A stretch of 7,627 nucleotides of DNA from JBDRGX01 sp043817485 [NCBI: bacterium] (GTDB lineage: Bacteria; JBDRGX01), in NCBI GenBank assembly GCA_043817485.1, contig JBDRGX010000082.1, forward strand, positions 1 to 7,627, given 5' to 3'. Positions 1 to 7,627 of this stretch are shown here, one piece after another. Position numbers and translations under genes: made by a program. The notes beneath the pieces were generated by a model, which made no database searches, was not told the DNA's origin, and was given only the letters and a program-made list of their open reading frames with translations. Positions within the stretch are counted from its first letter, which is position 1, and each line of letters opens with the position of its first letter.

Positions 1-3000
1 GGTAATTTAATATTCAAAAATGCACAAGAAGAAAGTCATATTCCTTCTACATTTAAAAATTTATTATCTTTACAATATTTTCTTAAACAAAAAGAATGGG
101 TTTCTTTTCGTACTGCTCTTATTAAAGGACAAGAAGTAAAATTAGAACAATCTCGTTATTTATCTGTTTGGATATATGGGCAAGGAAAAGGAGAAACTGT
201 ATATTTTGATATAGGAGAAATTAGTGAAGATTCAAATGAAAATGGATTTTTGGACACAGAAGACAAAAATAATAATAATTTTTTGGATGAAGGAGAAGAT
301 ACTGGATTAGATGGAATAAAAGGAAATTTTCCTCAAGGAGAAGGTTGGATTAGTAATTGGAATGATAATTATGATAATGAAAAAAATTTGTCTGGAACTG
401 AAGAAAATAAAAGATTAGATACAGAAGATATGGATGGAGATAAAAAACTTAATTTTTCAAAAGATAAGGAAAAATATTTTCAATACAAAATAAAAGTTGA
501 TGGAATAGGTTGGAAATTATATAATATTGAATTAAATATGCCATATAAAACAATTGGAAAAATTTCTTTATCTGAAATTAAGCATATGAGAATTTGGATA
601 TTTAATGAAACAGATAAAGATATTATTTTAGATAAAAAAAATCCTTCTTTAAAAATAGAAGAAATAAATTTTACAAGAAATTTAGTAACAGAAGTTATTT
701 CAGGAAAACTTATTCCAGAATTAGAAATAAAACAAATAGATGCTAAATTAAATATAAGTGGAGAAAATGTAGTTGTAATTGAAGGTGCTTATCGTCAACC
801 TAAAAGCCTTTCAGGGTCTTCCTTAACAAAAGCTGCTACTTCTGATATTACTCAACTTCTTTCAATATGTATAGCTGGAACTATTGGAGATAAAATTCGA
901 TTAAATATAACACATAAAGGTGGAAAAGAAAGAGATGTTCCTGTTGAAACTGTAAATGATATTAAAATAGATTATACTGGGCAAAAAAAAGATTTAGTTA
1001 AAAAAATAGTTTTTGGAGATATTGATGTTTCTTCTTTGAAAATAGAAAAAGGGTTTCCAGTTACTAATGTTTTTGGAGTAATGGGAGAAATTTCTTTGGA
1101 TGATGAAAAAATTGATAAATTATTTAAAAAAGAAAATAAAGAAGAAAAAAGATTATTTAAAAAAGATTTTAAATTAATTACTGCTTTAAGTCAATCAACA
1201 AATCAGGTAATTTTTGAAAAATTTACTGGTGGTTATGAAAAAACTCAAAAAGTTATAAAAGATACAGATTACATAAAAAATATATATTATAGCTTTTGGT
1301 ATGATGAAATTTATAATAAAGAAGAACCTTATAATAAGTGTTATAAAATAAGAGACCCTTATTATTTAGATGATAAAATAAAGAAAAATTTTACAGGAAA
1401 ACGAAGTTATGAAATTATTCCTAATAGTGAAGTTATATTTATAGATCATCAAAATGAAGGAAGAACAAATACTGGAACTGGTTCTATTATAGTAAAAAAT
1501 AAAGATATAACTAATCAAGATATTACTTTTTATTTAGATAGACAGATTCCCGGAAAAATTAGTAATTATACAATTAATTATAAAACTGGAATTATTGAAT
1601 TTACACAAGAAATAAAAAATCAAGAACTTATTTTTATAGCATATCAATATTATGGAGAAAATGGAATTATAGAAAGTATTGGTTATACATTAGATGAACA
1701 AGGAAAAATTAAATATACACCTGGTGTTGAATTAAAAAATGCTGAAGATCTTGCTAAATATTTTAAAAATATTAAATGTATAAAATATCAAAATGAATAT
1801 ATATCGCAAACAACAAAAAATTATGGAACTACTGAACAAAGAAGATTTTACAATTTATATACTTCTGGTGAAAATATTATTCCTCCAGAACAAGATCCAG
1901 ATTTTGTATTTAAAGTAGTTAATAAAGATCATAATGAGATTAATCATCCTAAATATCCAGAAATAAGAAATATGAATCCACCTATAATATTTGATTATAC
2001 TAATGGAATAATAGGATTTTATGAGCCTTTTGATGAAAAAAATTTTACAGATGGAACTTTTTCAAATCTACATCATTATTTAATAAAAATGAATTTTAAA
2101 ATACAAAAAACATCTTTTAGACTTAAACAAGGGTATGGTTTAGTTAAAGGAAGTGAAAAAGTTTATGTTGATGGTATTTTATTATCTAAAAACGAATATT
2201 CTTTAGATGATATAGGAAATTTGCAATTTTTTGATGCAACAAAAATTAAAAGTATAACGAACATAGAAGTAGAATATGAATTTAAGCCATTTGGAGGATT
2301 AGGTGGAGTAAATAATTTAGCTGGAATAAGAGGAGAAATTAATTTGTTACGAGGGGATAAAAATGAAAATTTATTTTTAAAGCAAATTAATTTTGGGACT
2401 ACATTTTTTTATTATGGAACACCATCATTTTCTTCAAGTGAAGGGAAAATGGTTCCACCAGAATTAGGAACAGAACCTTCATCTAAAGTTTTGAGAACTT
2501 TAGATGGTGAAGCAAATTTTAATTTTGTTTTAGGAAAAAAACCTCAAAAAAATATAAATATATTTGAACAAGAAATTAAAACAAAAGAAAATAAAATAGA
2601 GCAAGAAAAAAAAGAAGAAGTACTTAATTCAGATTTAGATATAAAGAAAAATGAAAATTTGGAATTAGATGAAAATTTTTCCAAAAAAATAAATGAAATA
2701 AAAAAAGATGATGATATTGAAATAAGAGAAGAAAGAAGATATTTAAGAGAAGATGATGATGAAAAAGAATTTGAAAAAGAAATAAAAAAACAAGATACAA
2801 GTTTTCCTATTGATATAAGTGTTAAAGGAAATATTTCTTATATTGACACTAATCTTAATACTTATAAATATCAAAGTGAAATTCAAAATAAAGCATCATT
2901 CGGAATGGAAAAAAGATCTATTGCTATGATTGAAAATATGGAAGGAATAGATGTTTCTATTCCCATAAGAATAGATTATAATGCTTGGATTCCTTCGAGT

Positions 3001-6000
3001 CCACCAATAGATTTTATTACTGATGAAATGAAAGTGATTCAAAATAAACGAGGCAAAATAGCAATTAAAAAAGCAAAAGGAAAAGGAAAAGATAGTGTAG
3101 ATGAAATATTACTTTTTTCTTTACAAAATGAATTATTGCCTAATGAATGGACTGGGATAAGAACACCTATAACTAGTACAACTAAAGGGAAAAATTTAGA
3201 GGAATATAAAACACTTGAAATTTCATTATTAAGTAAAGGAGAACAAGAAGTTTTTTCTCTTATTAAAGAAGGAAAAATAAAAATTTTCATAGATATAGGA
3301 AAAATAAATGAAGATAGTGATGGTGATGGAATTTTGGATAAAGAAGATTTTAATCATAATAAAACACTTGATACAGCAGAAGATGTTGGATTATGTGGAG
3401 ATAAACCAGAAATTGAAGGAGGTAAAGGTTGGATTAAAAATTGGGATGATGTATATTCAAAAGATAATCCAACAGGTACTAAAAATAATGGTTTATTAAA
3501 TACAGAAGATATGGATGGAGATGGACTTTTAGAAGATGATAATGAAGATAGTTTTTATCGTTTTGCAATTTCTCCAGAAATGCTTTATTGGAATGAAGAT
3601 AGATGTGGTGTTGCTTCTATAAATTTAATGTTACCAACAAAAGAAGTAAAAACTGATACAAATTTATGGAAAGATGTTAAATCTATGAGATTAATAATGA
3701 AAAATGATTCTTCTAAAAATGTATCTTGTGAAATTAATATTGAATCCATGAGATTTGTTGGGAATAGATGGAAAATTAATTCAGAATGGGTAAAACAAAA
3801 TACTAATATTTCAGAAAAAAACCCTCCTATTTTTAAAATAGATTATATCAATAATTATGATAAAAATTATATAGAAGATTTAGAATTTAAACCTACAGAA
3901 ATTAAAGACAGTACATTTTCTTTTGATAATACTAAAAAAGATAAAATTAAAGAACAGTCTTTAAAAATTACTTATGAAAATATTAAACTTCAACCTGATT
4001 GGGAAAAACAAGCATGGGTTAATCTTTCTTTTTACAAAGGATTAGAACATTTATCTTGTTATAAAAAACTTCGTTTTAGTGTTTATAGTGCTTATCCTGA
4101 AGATAAATTATTTTTTAGATTTGGATCTAGTGACAAAACTAATCAAATTCAATATAAATTAGAAATTAAAAATAGTAAAGTATGGGAAAAAATAGAAATA
4201 GATTTAGAAGAGGTTAAAAATGTTCTTAAAGAATACTATCAAAAATATCCTTTAGGAAAATCTTCTAATGAAGATTATGGAATTTATACTTTTCAGAATG
4301 GTAAATGGGCAATCAAAGGAAAACCTTCATTAAATAATATTACTCAATTTTTTTTCGGAGTAGAAAACACTAAAACTTCTAATGAAATTTGGATTAATAA
4401 TATTATAGTTTGTGATATAGATGAAAAAAAAGGTAGCAAAAAAAATATTGCAATAAGTACTTCTTTAAGTAATTGGTTAAAATTAAATTTTATTAATAAT
4501 TATGAAGATTCTGATTTTTCTTCGGTTAAAAATTTAGAATATAGTTCTTCTCAATCTTTATTTACAAATACTAATTCTAATTTTAATTTTTTATCAGATA
4601 AATTTTCTTTTATTCCATTTTTTAATTATCAAAAAAGCAAAAAAATATATGATGAAAAAACAATAGTTGAATATAGCAATAATACTCTTTACAAAGAAGA
4701 TGAAAAAAAAACATCATATCAATGGAATAAATTTTCTTTTAATTTAATAAGTAAAGAAAGATTAAAAAAGAAAAATGAAAATAAAGTTTTAAATTATATT
4801 GATGGAATTAATTTTATTGAGGAACTTCAATTTATACCTCAACAATATTTTGATGTTTTTCAAAAAGAAAAAGATTATGTAATTAATAATTATAATAATA
4901 TAGAAACTTTAGATGAAAAAACTAAAGAAGCAATGTCTTCTACTAATATTGGGTTTAAATTAAATTTAGAAGAAAAAAAATATTTTCCTATTTTAAGTCA
5001 TAATTTTACTTCGGGATATATTTATAAATATGTAGATACTGATTATAATCCAAATTATTTAAAACTTTTTACTTCTTCTTATTATTCTTATTATTATAAA
5101 GAAAAACCTATTATTTCTAAAACTTATAATTATTTGTGGAGTGGAAATAGAACTCCTTATAAACTCATTAATTTTTTACCTCAATTAAATTATAATTATA
5201 CTATGAAAAAAGATCCAAATTTAAATACTTATATAACAGGACAAGCAAAAAAAACAATAGATGCTTTTGTAAAAGACGATGAAAATACGGAAGGAAGTAT
5301 TAATGTAGATATAAAACCTTTTTATATATTAAAAGATATTAATACTTTATATAAAGCTGGAGTATATCATAATATAGGAACAGAAAATTACAAAATAAAC
5401 AATGCTTTTAATTTATCGTTTAATTTAAGCACAAGAGATATTTTTATTTTGCTTCAAAAAAAACAAAAAACACAAATAAAAGAAGATATTCCAGTAATAG
5501 AAAATAATGTTTTTTTAGAAAAAGAAAATGGAAAGGAAAAAAAATCATATTTTACTTTTGCTGGGTTTATTCCTAATTTACAAATAAGTTCTACAAATGA
5601 ATATAAATATGCTTATTATAAAGAAACTTTTAATAAATTGCCTTTCAATGAAATTCTTAAAATTAAATTAAGAGAAGAAGAAAAATCTGGGTTATCTCAA
5701 TCAGTGCGTAATTTAAGTATAAATATTAGTCCAAATGATTTTAGTTATAAATTATGGGCAAATAAACTAAACAAAAAAGATTTTTTAATTAAAAAAGAAA
5801 AAAATAATGAAGCAAATCATTCTCAATTTATTTTTACTCCAACAATAGAATTTAACAATATGCTTTCTTTTTCTAATTCTTATTTAGGAGAAACTAATAA
5901 ATATACTTTTAAATTTGGAACAAGAAATAGTAATCCTTATATTTTAGAAAAAGGAATTTTTCTAAAATATAATTTTGATGAAATAAGCGTTGATTATAGT

Positions 6001-6594
6001 TGTGAACATTCTATAATAAAAACTTATACTTTTTCAAAAAATGTTTTAAATTCTGTAGGGACTACTATTACTCATTTTTTTGGAATTTTTTCTTCTTTTA
6101 AAAAAGTAGGGATATCTTATGATAAGGAAAAAAAAGAATATAATTTTATTGAAGGGAAAAGTTTTTATAAAGTAAATTTATTACCTTCTACTTTTACTAT
6201 TTTTCAAAGAGAAAAAAATTTACAAGAAAAAAAAATTAATACAAAACTTTTAAATTTAACTATAGGAGTTAATAATATTCATTTTAATCCATTTTTTAAA
6301 ATTTGGAAAAAACAAATTGAAACAAAACAAACTTTTGATGCTCGTTATATTATAGATATTTATAATTATCAACAAAAAGATATGATTACTTTTAATTATT
6401 CACGAATAGAAAAAAATGTTGATTGGATAAAAGCATCTATTGATTTAACTTATACTTTATTGCAAAATATTAAAGCTACTTATGGACTTAATTTTTTATG
6501 GCATGATGATTTTAGTACAACCTTTAAACAAGAAGGAACAAAGGATTTTATAGATGTAAGGATTTCATTTTTAATAAGAATGGAATTAAGGTAA
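1..6594 (+). CDS. sprA: SprA/Sov-family outer-membrane translocon (type IX secretion), 5'-partial
   Basis: In T9SS bacteria SprA (Sov) is the very large outer-membrane beta-barrel through which folded CTD cargo leaves the periplasm, with PorV and a plug protein as partners. The frame is open from base 1 to the TAA at 6592, so the true start and signal peptide lie upstream. SprA landmarks, in window codons: ISED domain copy 1 (about 20-227), GDKI segment with a Y-G-Q-K-K-D-L-V-K-K-I core (281-364), GSxxV strand modules (475-534, 717-743), EPSS..LDG (825-840), a charged insert (856-932), IENMEG...PSSPP (977-1002), ISED domain copy 2 (1036-1258), EQSL (1318), RFGS (1373), KGKPSLNN (1439), EIWINN (1462), LSNWL (1489), then about 700 residues of alternating aromatic/polar strands. 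The 2197 visible residues compare with roughly 2400-2500 for complete SprA/Sov. Assignment rests on remembered family motifs and their order, not on a search; family membership looks secure, an active T9SS role is inferred. Confidence 0.85.
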   Translation, partial: GNLIFKNAQEESHIPSTFKNLLSLQYFLKQKEWVSFRTALIKGQEVKLEQSRYLSVWIYGQGKGETVYFDIGEISEDSNENGFLDTEDKNNNNFLDEGEDTGLDGIKGNFPQGEGWISNWNDNYDNEKNLSGTEENKRLDTEDMDGDKKLNFSKDKEKYFQYKIKVDGIGWKLYNIELNMPYKTIGKISLSEIKHMRIWIFNETDKDIILDKKNPSLKIEEINFTRNLVTEVISGKLIPELEIKQIDAKLNISGENVVVIEGAYRQPKSLSGSSLTKAATSDITQLLSICIAGTIGDKIRLNITHKGGKERDVPVETVNDIKIDYTGQKKDLVKKIVFGDIDVSSLKIEKGFPVTNVFGVMGEISLDDEKIDKLFKKENKEEKRLFKKDFKLITALSQSTNQVIFEKFTGGYEKTQKVIKDTDYIKNIYYSFWYDEIYNKEEPYNKCYKIRDPYYLDDKIKKNFTGKRSYEIIPNSEVIFIDHQNEGRTNTGTGSIIVKNKDITNQDITFYLDRQIPGKISNYTINYKTGIIEFTQEIKNQELIFIAYQYYGENGIIESIGYTLDEQGKIKYTPGVELKNAEDLAKYFKNIKCIKYQNEYISQTTKNYGTTEQRRFYNLYTSGENIIPPEQDPDFVFKVVNKDHNEINHPKYPEIRNMNPPIIFDYTNGIIGFYEPFDEKNFTDGTFSNLHHYLIKMNFKIQKTSFRLKQGYGLVKGSEKVYVDGILLSKNEYSLDDIGNLQFFDATKIKSITNIEVEYEFKPFGGLGGVNNLAGIRGEINLLRGDKNENLFLKQINFGTTFFYYGTPSFSSSEGKMVPPELGTEPSSKVLRTLDGEANFNFVLGKKPQKNINIFEQEIKTKENKIEQEKKEEVLNSDLDIKKNENLELDENFSKKINEIKKDDDIEIREERRYLREDDDEKEFEKEIKKQDTSFPIDISVKGNISYIDTNLNTYKYQSEIQNKASFGMEKRSIAMIENMEGIDVSIPIRIDYNAWIPSSPPIDFITDEMKVIQNKRGKIAIKKAKGKGKDSVDEILLFSLQNELLPNEWTGIRTPITSTTKGKNLEEYKTLEISLLSKGEQEVFSLIKEGKIKIFIDIGKINEDSDGDGILDKEDFNHNKTLDTAEDVGLCGDKPEIEGGKGWIKNWDDVYSKDNPTGTKNNGLLNTEDMDGDGLLEDDNEDSFYRFAISPEMLYWNEDRCGVASINLMLPTKEVKTDTNLWKDVKSMRLIMKNDSSKNVSCEINIESMRFVGNRWKINSEWVKQNTNISEKNPPIFKIDYINNYDKNYIEDLEFKPTEIKDSTFSFDNTKKDKIKEQSLKITYENIKLQPDWEKQAWVNLSFYKGLEHLSCYKKLRFSVYSAYPEDKLFFRFGSSDKTNQIQYKLEIKNSKVWEKIEIDLEEVKNVLKEYYQKYPLGKSSNEDYGIYTFQNGKWAIKGKPSLNNITQFFFGVENTKTSNEIWINNIIVCDIDEKKGSKKNIAISTSLSNWLKLNFINNYEDSDFSSVKNLEYSSSQSLFTNTNSNFNFLSDKFSFIPFFNYQKSKKIYDEKTIVEYSNNTLYKEDEKKTSYQWNKFSFNLISKERLKKKNENKVLNYIDGINFIEELQFIPQQYFDVFQKEKDYVINNYNNIETLDEKTKEAMSSTNIGFKLNLEEKKYFPILSHNFTSGYIYKYVDTDYNPNYLKLFTSSYYSYYYKEKPIISKTYNYLWSGNRTPYKLINFLPQLNYNYTMKKDPNLNTYITGQAKKTIDAFVKDDENTEGSINVDIKPFYILKDINTLYKAGVYHNIGTENYKINNAFNLSFNLSTRDIFILLQKKQKTQIKEDIPVIENNVFLEKENGKEKKSYFTFAGFIPNLQISSTNEYKYAYYKETFNKLPFNEILKIKLREEEKSGLSQSVRNLSINISPNDFSYKLWANKLNKKDFLIKKEKNNEANHSQFIFTPTIEFNNMLSFSNSYLGETNKYTFKFGTRNSNPYILEKGIFLKYNFDEISVDYSCEHSIIKTYTFSKNVLNSVGTTITHFFGIFSSFKKVGISYDKEKKEYNFIEGKSFYKVNLLPSTFTIFQREKNLQEKKINTKLLNLTIGVNNIHFNPFFKIWKKQIETKQTFDARYIIDIYNYQQKDMITFNYSRIEKNVDWIKASIDLTYTLLQNIKATYGLNFLWHDDFSTTFKQEGTKDFIDVRISFLIRMELR
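58..681 (+). repeat. ISED domain, copy 1 (N-terminal duplicate inside SprA)
   Basis: This protein-level repeat matches the domain at 3106-3774. Shared landmarks in order are LLSLQ...EWVSFR, YLSVWIYG, YFDIGEISED, LDTED, GEDTGLDG, GWISNW, LDTEDMDGD and HMRIWIF. It carries three Asp/Asn-rich loops that resemble EF-hand, dockerin or thrombospondin-type-3 calcium loops (starting near codons 77, 88 and 143). The copy has no cysteine. From memory of the family, this domain normally sits only in the middle of SprA, after the GDK segment, so an N-terminal copy looks like an extra. The duplicates are diverged at nucleotide level, so the duplication is old. Confidence 0.75.
841..1092 (+). other. GDKI beta-strand segment of SprA
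   Basis: Codons 281-364 reproduce a characteristic SprA stretch. A short strand ends in GTIGDKI and is followed by NITHKGG. Next comes IKIDYTGQKKDLVKKIVFGD, matching the family pattern of I-K-L-x-Y-x-G-x-E-D-E-I-I-K-x-I-x-x-G-N. The segment closes with an S-L-x(n)-V-F-G-V-M-G-E-I element like the family's LFGVK. A short LSQS and FTGG follow near codons 393-409, as SQQ and GG do in canonical SprA. This is one of the best pieces of evidence for the family call. Confidence 0.75.
2566..2796 (+). other. Highly charged low-complexity insert in SprA
   Basis: These 77 residues (codons 856-932) contain 19 Glu, 10 Asp, 15 Lys and 4 Arg, so about 62% are charged, with runs such as KKDDD and REDDDEKEFEKE. 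They lie between the EPSS..LDG segment and the conserved SVKGNISYIDTN strand, where canonical SprA has a short link. The segment is probably a disordered or helical solvent-exposed loop. Its function is unknown. Reading frame and AT-rich codon use continue unbroken through it. Confidence 0.7.
3106..3774 (+). repeat. ISED domain, copy 2 (canonical mid-protein position)
   Basis: This is the second copy of the domain at 58-681, at the position expected for SprA, right after the IENMEG...PSSPP segment. Landmarks are LLFSLQ...EWTGIRTP, LEEYKTLEISLL, IFIDIGKINED, DSDGDGILD, AEDVGLCG, GWIKNWDD, LNTEDMDGDGLLEDD, DVKSMRLIM and MRFVGNRWK. Three Asp-rich loops near codons 1105, 1117 and 1170 resemble calcium-binding loops. 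The Asp of the family's GLDG is Cys here (codon 1132), and two more Cys are at codons 1202 and 1243. Confidence 0.8.
4456..6591 (+). other. C-terminal beta-barrel half of SprA
   Basis: From about codon 1486 to the end, the protein is a series of short stretches with alternating polar and hydrophobic/aromatic residues rich in Tyr and Phe, separated by Lys/Asn/Glu-rich turns. This is the usual look of transmembrane outer-membrane strands and loops. I recognise few family-specific motifs after LSNWL, so this half is more divergent than the N-terminal half. The gene ends in a strand-like DVRISFLIRMELR. Barrel assignment is by composition and position. Confidence 0.55.
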
Positions 6595-6628: not shown

Positions 6629-7330
6629 TTGTTTTCAATTTTACAACAAACTTTAAATTTAATATATCCATCAAATTGTATAAGTTGTAAAATTAGTTTA
6701 AAATTTTATGAAAAATATGTTTGTGATATCTGTTTAAATAAAATAGAATTTATAAAAAAATGTTGTATTGTTTGTGGAAAGCCTTTAATTGCAAGTGAAA
6801 TTAAATGTGGACAATGTATTGTAGATTTACCTGTTTTTGAAAAAGCTATATCAGTAGGAAATTATAATGTGGTAATTAAAGATATTATTCTTTTATTCAA
6901 ATATAAAAAACGAGAAGGGATCAGTAAAATAATAGAAAAAATTATTTTTAAATATTTAGAAAATGAGAGTTTAAATAAGAATATTGATTTAATGATACCA
7001 GTTCCTTTACATAAATCTCGATTAAAAGAAAGGGGCTTTAATCAATCAGAAATTTTAGCAAAAATTATAAGAAAAAAATATTCTTTTAAAATCGAAAAAA
7101 ATTTAATAAGAATAAAAAAAACAAGACCGCAAATAGAATTAAATGCAAAAGAAAGAAAAGATAATATAAAAGGAGCGTTTGTTCTAAAAACACCAGAAAA
7201 AATTAAAGACAAAACAATACTTTTGATAGATGATGTTTATACTACTGGTTCTACTATTAAAGAATGTGCAAAAGTATTACAAAAAGCAAAAGTTAAGACA
7301 ATATATGTTTTTACTTTTGCTCATGGATAG
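6629..7330 (+). CDS. comF: ComF/GntX-family phosphoribosyltransferase with zinc finger
   Basis: ComF-family proteins pair an N-terminal four-cysteine zinc-binding region with a type I phosphoribosyltransferase fold. In naturally competent bacteria they are cytoplasmic factors needed for DNA uptake or processing; the substrate is not established. The 233 residues show CxxC pairs at 17/20 and 32/35, a further CxxCG at 46-50 and CGQC at 60-63. The PRTase part has FKYKKREG (90-97), IPVPLHKSRLKERGFNQSE (123-141), TRPQIELNAKERKDNIKGAF (165-184) and the PRPP-binding loop ILLIDDVYTTGST (197-209). All signature residues are present and length is normal, so it should be intact. The start is non-ATG: TTG at 6629, with ATT at 6623 possible. 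It lies 34 bp after sprA in the same direction, probably cotranscribed. Composition matches its neighbour. Family is certain; a competence role is not shown. Confidence 0.93.
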   Translation: MFSILQQTLNLIYPSNCISCKISLKFYEKYVCDICLNKIEFIKKCCIVCGKPLIASEIKCGQCIVDLPVFEKAISVGNYNVVIKDIILLFKYKKREGISKIIEKIIFKYLENESLNKNIDLMIPVPLHKSRLKERGFNQSEILAKIIRKKYSFKIEKNLIRIKKTRPQIELNAKERKDNIKGAFVLKTPEKIKDKTILLIDDVYTTGSTIKECAKVLQKAKVKTIYVFTFAHG

Positions 7331-7422: not shown

Positions 7423-7627
7423 TGTCATCTTTCACAACGTTGTTCCTGAAAAATGTTTAAATGATTGTAAATTTTCAAAATATTATTTTTAAATTCTAAT
7501 GGACTTTTATGAAAAATTTCTGGCTTATTTTTATACCACCATTCTATTGCATCATAAGGTGTTTTTACATTTAACTCTTTTTTTAAAGAACTATGTTTTC
7601 TATTAAAAATATAAAATAACAAAAACT
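7423..7627. mobile_element. End of an IS481-like insertion sequence (partial)
   Basis: The element appears to begin at TGTCATCTTTCACAACG: a TGT terminus with the transposase stop codon (7425-7427, minus strand) inside the inverted repeat, an arrangement typical of IS481-family elements. ACAACGTTGT at 7434-7443 is a perfect palindrome within this end. The rest of the element, the other inverted repeat and the target duplication are beyond the window, so the boundary at 7423 is inferred from one end only. Confidence 0.65.
7425..7627 (-). CDS. IS481-like transposase, C-terminal fragment (gene continues past window)
   Basis: This is the tail of a DDE/integrase-core (rve) transposase, which would cut and join the insertion sequence ends in the cytoplasm. 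About 67 codons are visible. They show the post-catalytic FNRKHSSL motif, equivalent to YNxxRPHSSL, then KTPYDAIEWWYKNKPEIFHK, matching the K-T-P-(Y/F)-E-A-x-x-x-W-(Y/F) pattern of the rve_3 region, and a terminal QRCER like the QRCET endings of IS481 transposases. The reading frame enters from beyond the right edge, so no start can be assigned and the catalytic DDE residues are not visible. The visible part has no stop or frameshift, so the gene may be intact. It converges on comF with about 92 bp between. IS3-family transposases share the rve core; the ending favours IS481. Confidence 0.8.
   Translation of the reverse strand, partial: FLLFYIFNRKHSSLKKELNVKTPYDAIEWWYKNKPEIFHKSPLEFKNNILKIYNHLNIFQEQRCER

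What the first reader, a model, noticed from the sequence alone, without database searches (positions are those of the whole stretch)
58..3774. ISED/calcium-loop domain duplicated, with an extra N-terminal copy
Two diverged copies (58-681 and 3106-3774) share a dozen landmarks in order, including the EW...R entry, the ISED/INED motif, three Asp-rich loops and the MR(I/L) strand. Copy 2 is at the usual SprA site. Copy 1 precedes the GDKI segment, where I recall no such domain in canonical SprA. It could give a second calcium-dependent periplasmic or partner-binding module.
Basis: partly seen in the sequence, partly recalled or inferred. Interest (0 to 1): 0.6.

Follow-up and report, generated by a model that had tools for sequence, protein, structure and literature searches.

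The report
SprA-like pore with duplicated domain
A very AT-rich uncultivated bacterium encodes a relative of the giant SprA protein-secretion pore that carries a second, diverged copy of one of its own domains near its front end, a layout that none of the comparison proteins read here showed, though what the extra domain does is not known.

Summary
One open frame (window 1-6594, 5' end outside the window) holds two diverged copies of a domain, aa 20-227 and 1036-1258, 32% identical, far above chance. It is the ISED domain of SprA, the type 9 secretion translocon: a jelly roll like a family-11 carbohydrate-binding module, with Asp/Asn-rich loops. Copy 2 is at the usual place. Copy 1 lies before the GDKI segment, where 39 of 39 SprA-like frames of three uncultivated phyla and 57 of 57 Bacteroidota SprA frames show no such domain. 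Front ends differ: FN3 repeats in part of one phylum, in F. johnsoniae a SkpA-caged peptide. A GxGWIxNWxDxY loop occurs in both window copies and in no other of 265 frames scanned, and each copy, alone, falls at the same place in trees, so duplication within the window's lineage is likeliest, though long branches keep it unproved. The domain also occurs as small free-standing proteins with lipoprotein-like starts, arisen at least twice. Calcium binding, compartment and function are inferred. The protein is a divergent SprA homologue below the TIGR04189 cut-off. New variant of a known kind.

The parts
1..6594 (+). SprA-like protein, 2197 codons, 5' end outside the window
   Evidence: Open frame; TIGR04189 surface_SprA 52.7 bits, E 1.1e-14, cut-off 200
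58..681 (+). Copy 1 of the ISED/CBM11-like jelly-roll domain (aa 20-227), the extra N-terminal copy
   Evidence: fold matches SprA 8gl8 chain A from residue 941, Z 11.4, 3.3 A over 194 residues
226..300 (+). First and second Asp/Asn-rich loops of copy 1 (EDSNENGFLDTED, DKNNNNFLDEGED)
   Evidence: E76 kept in 38 of 38 rows, D77 in 36 of 38 (N in 1)
337..372 (+). GEGWISNWNDNY loop of copy 1, shared only with copy 2
415..453 (+). Third Asp-rich loop of copy 1 (LDTEDMDGDKKLN)
   Evidence: D143 kept in 37 of 38 rows (N in 1)
748..1161 (+). GDKI segment, start of the conserved SprA region
   Evidence: TIGR04189 model positions 99-232, E 5.8e-10 for the piece 682-1800
2527..2865 (+). Lys/Glu/Asp/Asn-rich stretch between the GDKI half and copy 2
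   Evidence: K 17%, E 17%, D 11%, N 10% over aa 843-955
3106..3774 (+). Copy 2 of the ISED/CBM11-like domain (aa 1036-1258), at the usual SprA place
   Evidence: TIGR04189 model 897-954, weak alone (E 0.94)
3310..3384 (+). First and second Asp/Asn-rich loops of copy 2 (EDSDGDGILDKED, DFNHNKTLDTAED)
3421..3456 (+). GKGWIKNWDDVY loop of copy 2, shared only with copy 1
3496..3534 (+). Third Asp-rich loop of copy 2 (LNTEDMDGDGLLE)
3757..4425 (+). Second jelly roll next to copy 2 (model residues 225-447 of 3085-4545)
   Evidence: Copy 2 plus this domain match SprA 8gl8 951-1515, Z 17.6 (369 residues, rmsd 9.9 A); this part matches CBM11 6r3m, Z 12.6
4426..6594 (+). C-terminal part, presumed barrel strands (inference; the piece 4501-6591 has no NCBIfam match)
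6629..7330 (+). comF-like gene starting 35 nt after the SprA stop; context marker
   Evidence: NCBIfam comF models match below their own cut-offs (TIGR00201 E 7.7e-36); same order in 12 of 39 SprA-like loci

Best explanation
The protein is a divergent SprA homologue, most likely the outer-membrane pore of a type 9 secretion system in an uncultivated, very AT-rich bacterium. Its ISED domain, a CBM11-like jelly roll with Asp/Asn-rich loops that probably hold Ca2+, was duplicated inside the gene and the copy now stands just before the first conserved barrel segment. Shown: two homologous copies, loop acids kept in both, same fold by prediction, extra copy absent from every homologue read here. 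Inferred: because the SprA N-terminus lies in the periplasm in the solved extended translocon, copy 1 is a folded periplasmic module at the pore entrance; it sits where F. johnsoniae SprA has a SkpA-caged peptide and where some relatives have FN3 repeats, and most likely acts as a Ca2+-stabilised docking or vestibule domain for a secretion partner or substrate. Likelihood of the architecture and origin about 0.8; of the docking role about 0.4.
For: Homology of the copies. Copy 1 model matches SprA chains from residue 940-941 on (last aligned residue 1265-1267 in two entries, 1490-1508 in the other two), Z 10.7-11.4; copy 2 with its neighbour matches 951-1515. The profile of 38 ISED domains finds F. 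johnsoniae SprA 984-1268 by sequence, E 2e-8, and nothing else in the PDB at E up to 1. Piece by piece, copy 1 hits TIGR04189 at 897-955, the copy 2 place. One domain in 39 of 39 and 57 of 57 homologous frames. Private GxGWIxNWxDxY loop. Left out in turn, each copy falls beside the same group of Bacteroidota and two free-standing domains (SH-aLRT 95 for copy 1, 77 for copy 2); together they join (bootstrap 72, SH-aLRT 24, unstarred). sprA-comF order shared with 12 of 39 SprA-like loci. In 29 relatives' genomes chosen from the three phyla, secretion signals (TIGR04183) occur in 28 and PorV-family carriers in 29 (among 14 control genomes these families also match in 2 and 1). N-terminal SprA peptide caged by SkpA and its removal harming transport: PMC10994853, passages and one section read.
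Against: The window's genome is not held, so no other secretion part could be checked in it. The protein misses the TIGR04189 equivalog cut-off (52.7 against 200 bits) and Pfam PF14349 altogether. Tree branches of both copies are very long; the tool warned that the joins of copy 1 with copy 2, and of copy 2 with the Bacteroidota group, may be false for that reason. In the tree without Bacteroidota the copies do not group (28% of bootstraps), although holding them together is not rejected (p-AU 0.46). Copy 1 is more identical to a domain of another phylum (39%, L180) than to copy 2 (32%). No evidence on Ca2+ or on any partner.
Confidence: 0.55

Rival explanations
1. Copy 1 is an old, regular feature of SprA in the window's own unsampled phylum, gained or kept there long ago, rather than an oddity of one lineage.
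For: The window protein sits on a long branch outside all three sampled uncultivated phyla (quick tree); the copies are only 32% identical; direct searches found no relative, and the best ComF relatives are only 29-44% identical.
Against: No second example was found in what was reached; the private loop only says that the duplication came after that loop arose.
Confidence: 0.4
2. Copy 1 is a spacer or folding aid with no specific partner, one of several interchangeable beta-sandwich domains that SprA homologues carry before the barrel.
For: Six of ten N-termini scanned, all from one phylum, carry FN3 repeats there; in the other two uncultivated phyla the GDK-like motif comes at residue 88-207 of the frame, leaving little room before it.
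Against: Loop acids of copy 1 are kept, and the F. johnsoniae N-terminus has a partner, SkpA (PMC10994853, passages).
Confidence: 0.25
3. Copy 1 is a free-standing ISED protein fused to the front of SprA.
For: Such proteins exist beside SprA in two phyla: L266, L267 and L211.
Against: Copy 1 with L266 and L267 as one clade is rejected (p-AU 0.014, a group named after the tree was seen), and with all three (p-AU 9e-29); copy 1 shares its private loop with copy 2 instead. The window's own genome could not be searched for such a protein.
Confidence: 0.1
4. The two copies were joined by a metagenome assembly error.
For: The window is an unnamed record without a genome, and the copies are related, a usual setting for a chimera.
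Against: One open frame; ordinary codon usage in the copy 1 segment; the sequence after copy 1 goes on into conserved SprA sequence; the copies are much diverged at DNA level (best local DNA alignment about 260 nt).
Confidence: 0.04

Closest known systems
Flavobacterium johnsoniae SprA (PDB 6H3I, 8GL8), type 9 secretion translocon
   Same: ISED jelly roll (984-1268 by sequence) followed by a second jelly roll, to about 1515 by fold
   Different: Close Bacteroidota homologues show one ISED domain only; its N-terminus is a peptide caged by SkpA (PMC10994853, passages); the window protein is far below the equivalog cut-off
SprA-like proteins of three uncultivated phyla (loci L173-L210, L212)
   Same: GDK-like segment, ISED domain, second jelly roll; DxNxNG-type loops in most rows; comF next door in 12 of 39
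   Different: One ISED domain each; front end short or, in part of one phylum, with FN3 repeats
Free-standing ISED-domain proteins L266, L267 (phylum of G017, Bacteroidota) and L211 (phylum of G019)
   Same: Same domain used outside the barrel position, after a signal-like start with a lipobox-like cysteine (read by eye)
   Different: Separate genes in open frames of 320-401 codons; at least two origins; no private loop
Family 11 carbohydrate-binding module (6R3M, 6R31, 1V0A)
   Same: Jelly-roll fold, Z 9.7-10.0 with copy 1, level with a few unrelated jelly rolls
   Different: No sequence relationship shown; a shared fold says nothing about sugar binding

Membership tests
SprA/Sov T9SS translocon, NCBIfam TIGR04189 (equivalog) | Score at or above 200 bits | tested here: not met
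   52.7 bits, E 1.1e-14; of 30 genomes, 3 match and 0 exceed the cut-off
SprA/Sov T9SS translocon, NCBIfam TIGR04189 (equivalog) | Pieces in the order of the model: GDK segment, ISED domain, following domain | tested here: met
   99-232, 897-954 (weak alone, E 0.94), 1147-1472 in the whole-protein search; the piece 3700-4800 scanned alone gave no match
SprA/Sov T9SS translocon, NCBIfam TIGR04189 (equivalog) | ISED jelly roll plus second jelly roll of the SprA fold | tested here: met
   8gl8 chain A 951-1515, Z 17.6, best match of the library; rmsd 9.9 A over both domains together
SprA/Sov T9SS translocon, NCBIfam TIGR04189 (equivalog) | 36-strand barrel with lateral opening | not tested
SprA/Sov T9SS translocon, NCBIfam TIGR04189 (equivalog) | Other T9SS parts and CTD substrates in the same genome | not testable with these tools
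   No genome held for the window; present in relatives
Pfam PF14349 SprA_N | Score at or above 27 bits | tested here: not met
   No match to the whole window protein at E up to 1 nor to pieces 1-750, 3085-3800 and 682-3084
ISED domain of SprA | Sequence and fold match to F. johnsoniae SprA in the region from ~940 to ~1270 | tested here: met
   Profile of 38 domains, both copies included, E 2e-8 at 984-1268; fold Z 10.7-11.4 for copy 1
Family 11 carbohydrate-binding module | Sequence membership and a sugar-binding cleft | tested here: inconclusive
   Fold only, Z about 10; no Pfam match to either copy; cleft not examined
Calcium-binding module | Bound Ca2+ | not testable with these tools
   Only loop acids kept

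The most novel reading that the evidence does not exclude
The ISED jelly roll is a portable docking module of the type 9 translocon: lineages have repeatedly copied it out of SprA, as free-standing lipoproteins at least twice and, in the window, in cis to the front of the pore, where it takes over the place of the SkpA-bound leader as the periplasmic docking site.
Probability: 0.22. Interest if true: 0.7.

Novelty: new variant of a known kind. Interest (0 to 1): 0.45.

Why it matters
How the periplasmic entrance of the type 9 pore is organised is known from one model, F. johnsoniae, where a leader peptide caged by SkpA is important for transport (PMC10994853, passages). The front end of SprA homologues turns out to be a variable slot: SkpA-binding leader, FN3 repeats, little at all, or a copy of the pore's own ISED domain. 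That gives natural variants with which to ask what the slot does, and points to the ISED domain as a part with a job of its own.

Tried and rejected
Direct searches with the window protein found nothing: genome contigs, plasmids and phages by tblastn, PDB by phmmer; nor did viral contigs with the two-copy alignment. A detour through ComF gave genome handles, from which SprA-like proteins were reached. Prevotella NC_022111 gave no SprA match. No ISED match in 285 genomes of the phylum of G010 or 286 of the phylum of G021; one weak loop-only hit in 198 genomes of the phylum of G009. The tool warned that such empty answers show little.

Considered and rejected: canonical SprA already has the N-terminal copy; Pfam's double SprA_N match as an ISED duplication (against 99); fusion with a free-standing protein; assembly chimera. 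Weak extra profile hits in L193 (1003-1068, 13 bits) and L206 (841-890 and 894-955, 9 bits) lie after the ISED domain, in the region of the next jelly roll, and were not counted as ISED copies. Which side of the membrane the canonical ISED domain faces was not found: the 2018 structure paper is not held. In one search the GC3 value for the stretch before copy 2 was out of phase and is not used.

Limits of the counts. Of 63 genomes with ISED matches, none listed two full domains in one frame; G042, G073, G074, G076 and G104 show halves of one domain, G094 and G075 two separate frames. 40 regions were fetched for reading (39 SprA-like frames from 38 genomes, plus L211); L173, L174 and L177 are cut at the 3' end and L198 at the 5' end; L192 and L207 match in two halves. 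The 57 Bacteroidota frames are the 20 best-scoring, 20 picked at lower scores (first read from stretches that cut several of them; fetched again with longer flanks and read whole) and 17 picked (L263 has a masked run). With a distant profile some of these match in two adjoining halves of one domain. The profiles used for 40 of the 57 were built from Bacteroidota frames of the same set. In one search (295 of 395 genomes matched) the weaker rows were not listed, so a rare double copy there is not excluded.
Full report
What was checked. The window is 22.4% GC. One frame runs from its first base to 6594, followed by a comF-like gene at 6629. A profile search returns exactly these two such domains in the protein (the profile includes them).

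What the protein is. NCBIfam names it by one family, TIGR04189 surface_SprA, at 52.7 bits, below the cut-off of 200; Pfam has no match. Piece by piece, aa 30-83 of copy 1 hit model positions 897-955 (E 0.001), the piece with copy 2 hits 897-954 (weak, E 0.94), and the GDKI segment hits 99-232. So copy 1 resembles the part of the model that belongs to the copy 2 place. Related proteins, reached through ComF, occur in genomes whose contigs are titled Aerophobetes, Goldiibacteriota and Elusimicrobia (loci L016, L055, L083): the ISED profile matches 10 of 17, 38 of 45 and 15 of 16 genomes held for those phyla. In a quick tree of the conserved part the window protein is outside each of these groups, on a long branch. 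A comF-like frame lies on the same strand after sprA in 12 of 39 SprA-like loci; in ten of them its open frame begins within about 120 nt of the sprA stop or overlaps it, in L187 after 312 nt and in L208 after 1352 nt. Of the 39, 31 had at least 1 kb downstream to look at (recounted). In 29 genomes picked from these phyla, secretion-signal domains (TIGR04183) occur in 28 and PorV-family proteins in 29, so SprA there keeps the company of type 9 secretion parts; of 14 control genomes two match the first family and one the second. For the window's own genome this could not be tested.

Fold. AlphaFold models (copy 1: mean pLDDT 72, pTM 0.72, residues 1-12 and 104-134 poor; copy 2 with the next domain: pLDDT 75, pTM 0.63) both have F. 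johnsoniae SprA as best PDB match. Copy 1 aligns from residue 940-941, Z 10.7-11.4, 3.3-3.9 A over 190-194 residues in four entries; the last aligned residue is 1265-1267 in two entries and 1490-1508 in the other two. Copy 2 plus the next domain aligns to 951-1515, Z 17.6. The profile of 38 ISED domains matches the same chain at 984-1268 by sequence. The nearest other fold is the family 11 carbohydrate-binding module, level with a few unrelated jelly rolls. The copy 1 model rests on an alignment of homologous domains, so it supports rather than proves the shared fold.

Is the extra copy unusual? Yes, as far as could be reached. 39 of 39 SprA-like frames from three phyla have one ISED domain. 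57 of 57 Bacteroidota SprA frames have one, between residues 928 and 1517 of the frame. The ISED profile finds nothing in Bacteroidota residues 40-960 (probability 0.2%) but their ISED region at 99.2%. Upstream of the GDK segment, F. johnsoniae has a leader caged by SkpA, whose removal harms transport as much as loss of SkpA (PMC10994853; passages and section 7 read); six of ten scanned N-termini of the phylum of G019 have FN3 repeats and four have no Pfam match at E up to 0.01. The slot is variable.

Origin. Both window copies carry a GxGWIxNWxDxY loop absent from the 36 other domains aligned with them and from all other frames among 265 scanned for the pattern. With 17 Bacteroidota rows in the tree the copies join (72/24, unstarred) beside the Bacteroidota group (96/94, starred), and each alone goes to the same place; the tool warned of long branches in both. 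Without Bacteroidota they do not group, but grouping is not rejected (p-AU 0.46). A duplication inside the lineage is the simplest account, not a proved one.

A related find. Free-standing ISED proteins exist: L211 (401 codons, phylum of G019), L266 and L267 (320 and 352 codons, phylum of G017). Their starts look like lipoprotein signals (read by eye). They do not form one clade (p-AU 4e-11): L211 groups with its phylum's SprA domains, the other two with Bacteroidota SprA. So the domain has been copied out of SprA at least twice, which suggests a use apart from building the pore.

Mechanism. Shown: two copies, same family, loop acids kept (E76 in 38 of 38 rows, D77 in 36, D143 in 37). Inferred: Ca2+ in the loops; periplasmic place of copy 1, from the periplasmic N-terminus of SprA in PMC10994853; docking role. 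The side of the membrane of copy 2 is not known here. A C. hutchinsonii sprA mutant takes up less Ca2+ (PMC7906972, passages), but that paper does not speak of this domain in the passages seen, and the effect may be indirect.

Novelty. Searches of the paper library for SprA or type 9 secretion together with such phyla or with CBM terms listed no paper whose title or abstract start speaks of such a duplication; two papers on Goldbacteria and Cloacimonadota mention type 9 secretion only in their reference lists. The library lacks most subscription papers, so this is weak. The protein is a new variant of a known kind: a divergent SprA homologue with a duplicated domain.

Noticed in passing
L211 minus strand 5289-6491 (G075), L266 minus strand 3728-4687 (G175), L267 plus strand 3398-4453 (G221): Free-standing ISED-domain proteins with lipobox-like starts, in genomes that also encode SprA; at least two independent origins.
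   Followed up: partly
G039:C34, G041:C196, G045:C14, G044:C73 (twice), G044:C25, G024:C17, G024:C195, G037:C59, G049:C147, G049:C167, G089:C88: In the uncultivated phyla a secretion-signal (TIGR04183) hit is followed 69-171 nt later by a PorV-family hit on the same strand (12 pairs picked by eye from capped lists), and 29 genomes hold 2 to at least 56 PorV-family matches each, against 2 in the Bacteroidota genome G235: perhaps a private carrier for each substrate.
   Followed up: no
L153 (frame of the annotated translation) aa 58-457 and 1106-1602: Pfam PF14349 SprA_N matches two regions of canonical SprA between which profile-profile comparison finds no similarity; the model may mix unrelated regions.
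   Followed up: partly
L175, L176, L178, L182, L187, L189 N-termini: FN3 repeats before the GDK segment of SprA-like proteins of the phylum of G019.
   Followed up: partly
window 2527-2865: Lys/Glu/Asp/Asn-rich stretch of about 110 residues between the GDKI half and copy 2; comparison with homologues not made.
   Followed up: no
window 7425-7625 minus strand: Frame open at the window edge that looks like a transposase C-terminus (recalled resemblance); no match in plasmids.
   Followed up: partly
G744:C25:15531-15677 (L213): Weak match to the Asp-rich loops alone in a 1256-codon frame (E 1e-4), perhaps unrelated calcium repeats.
   Followed up: no
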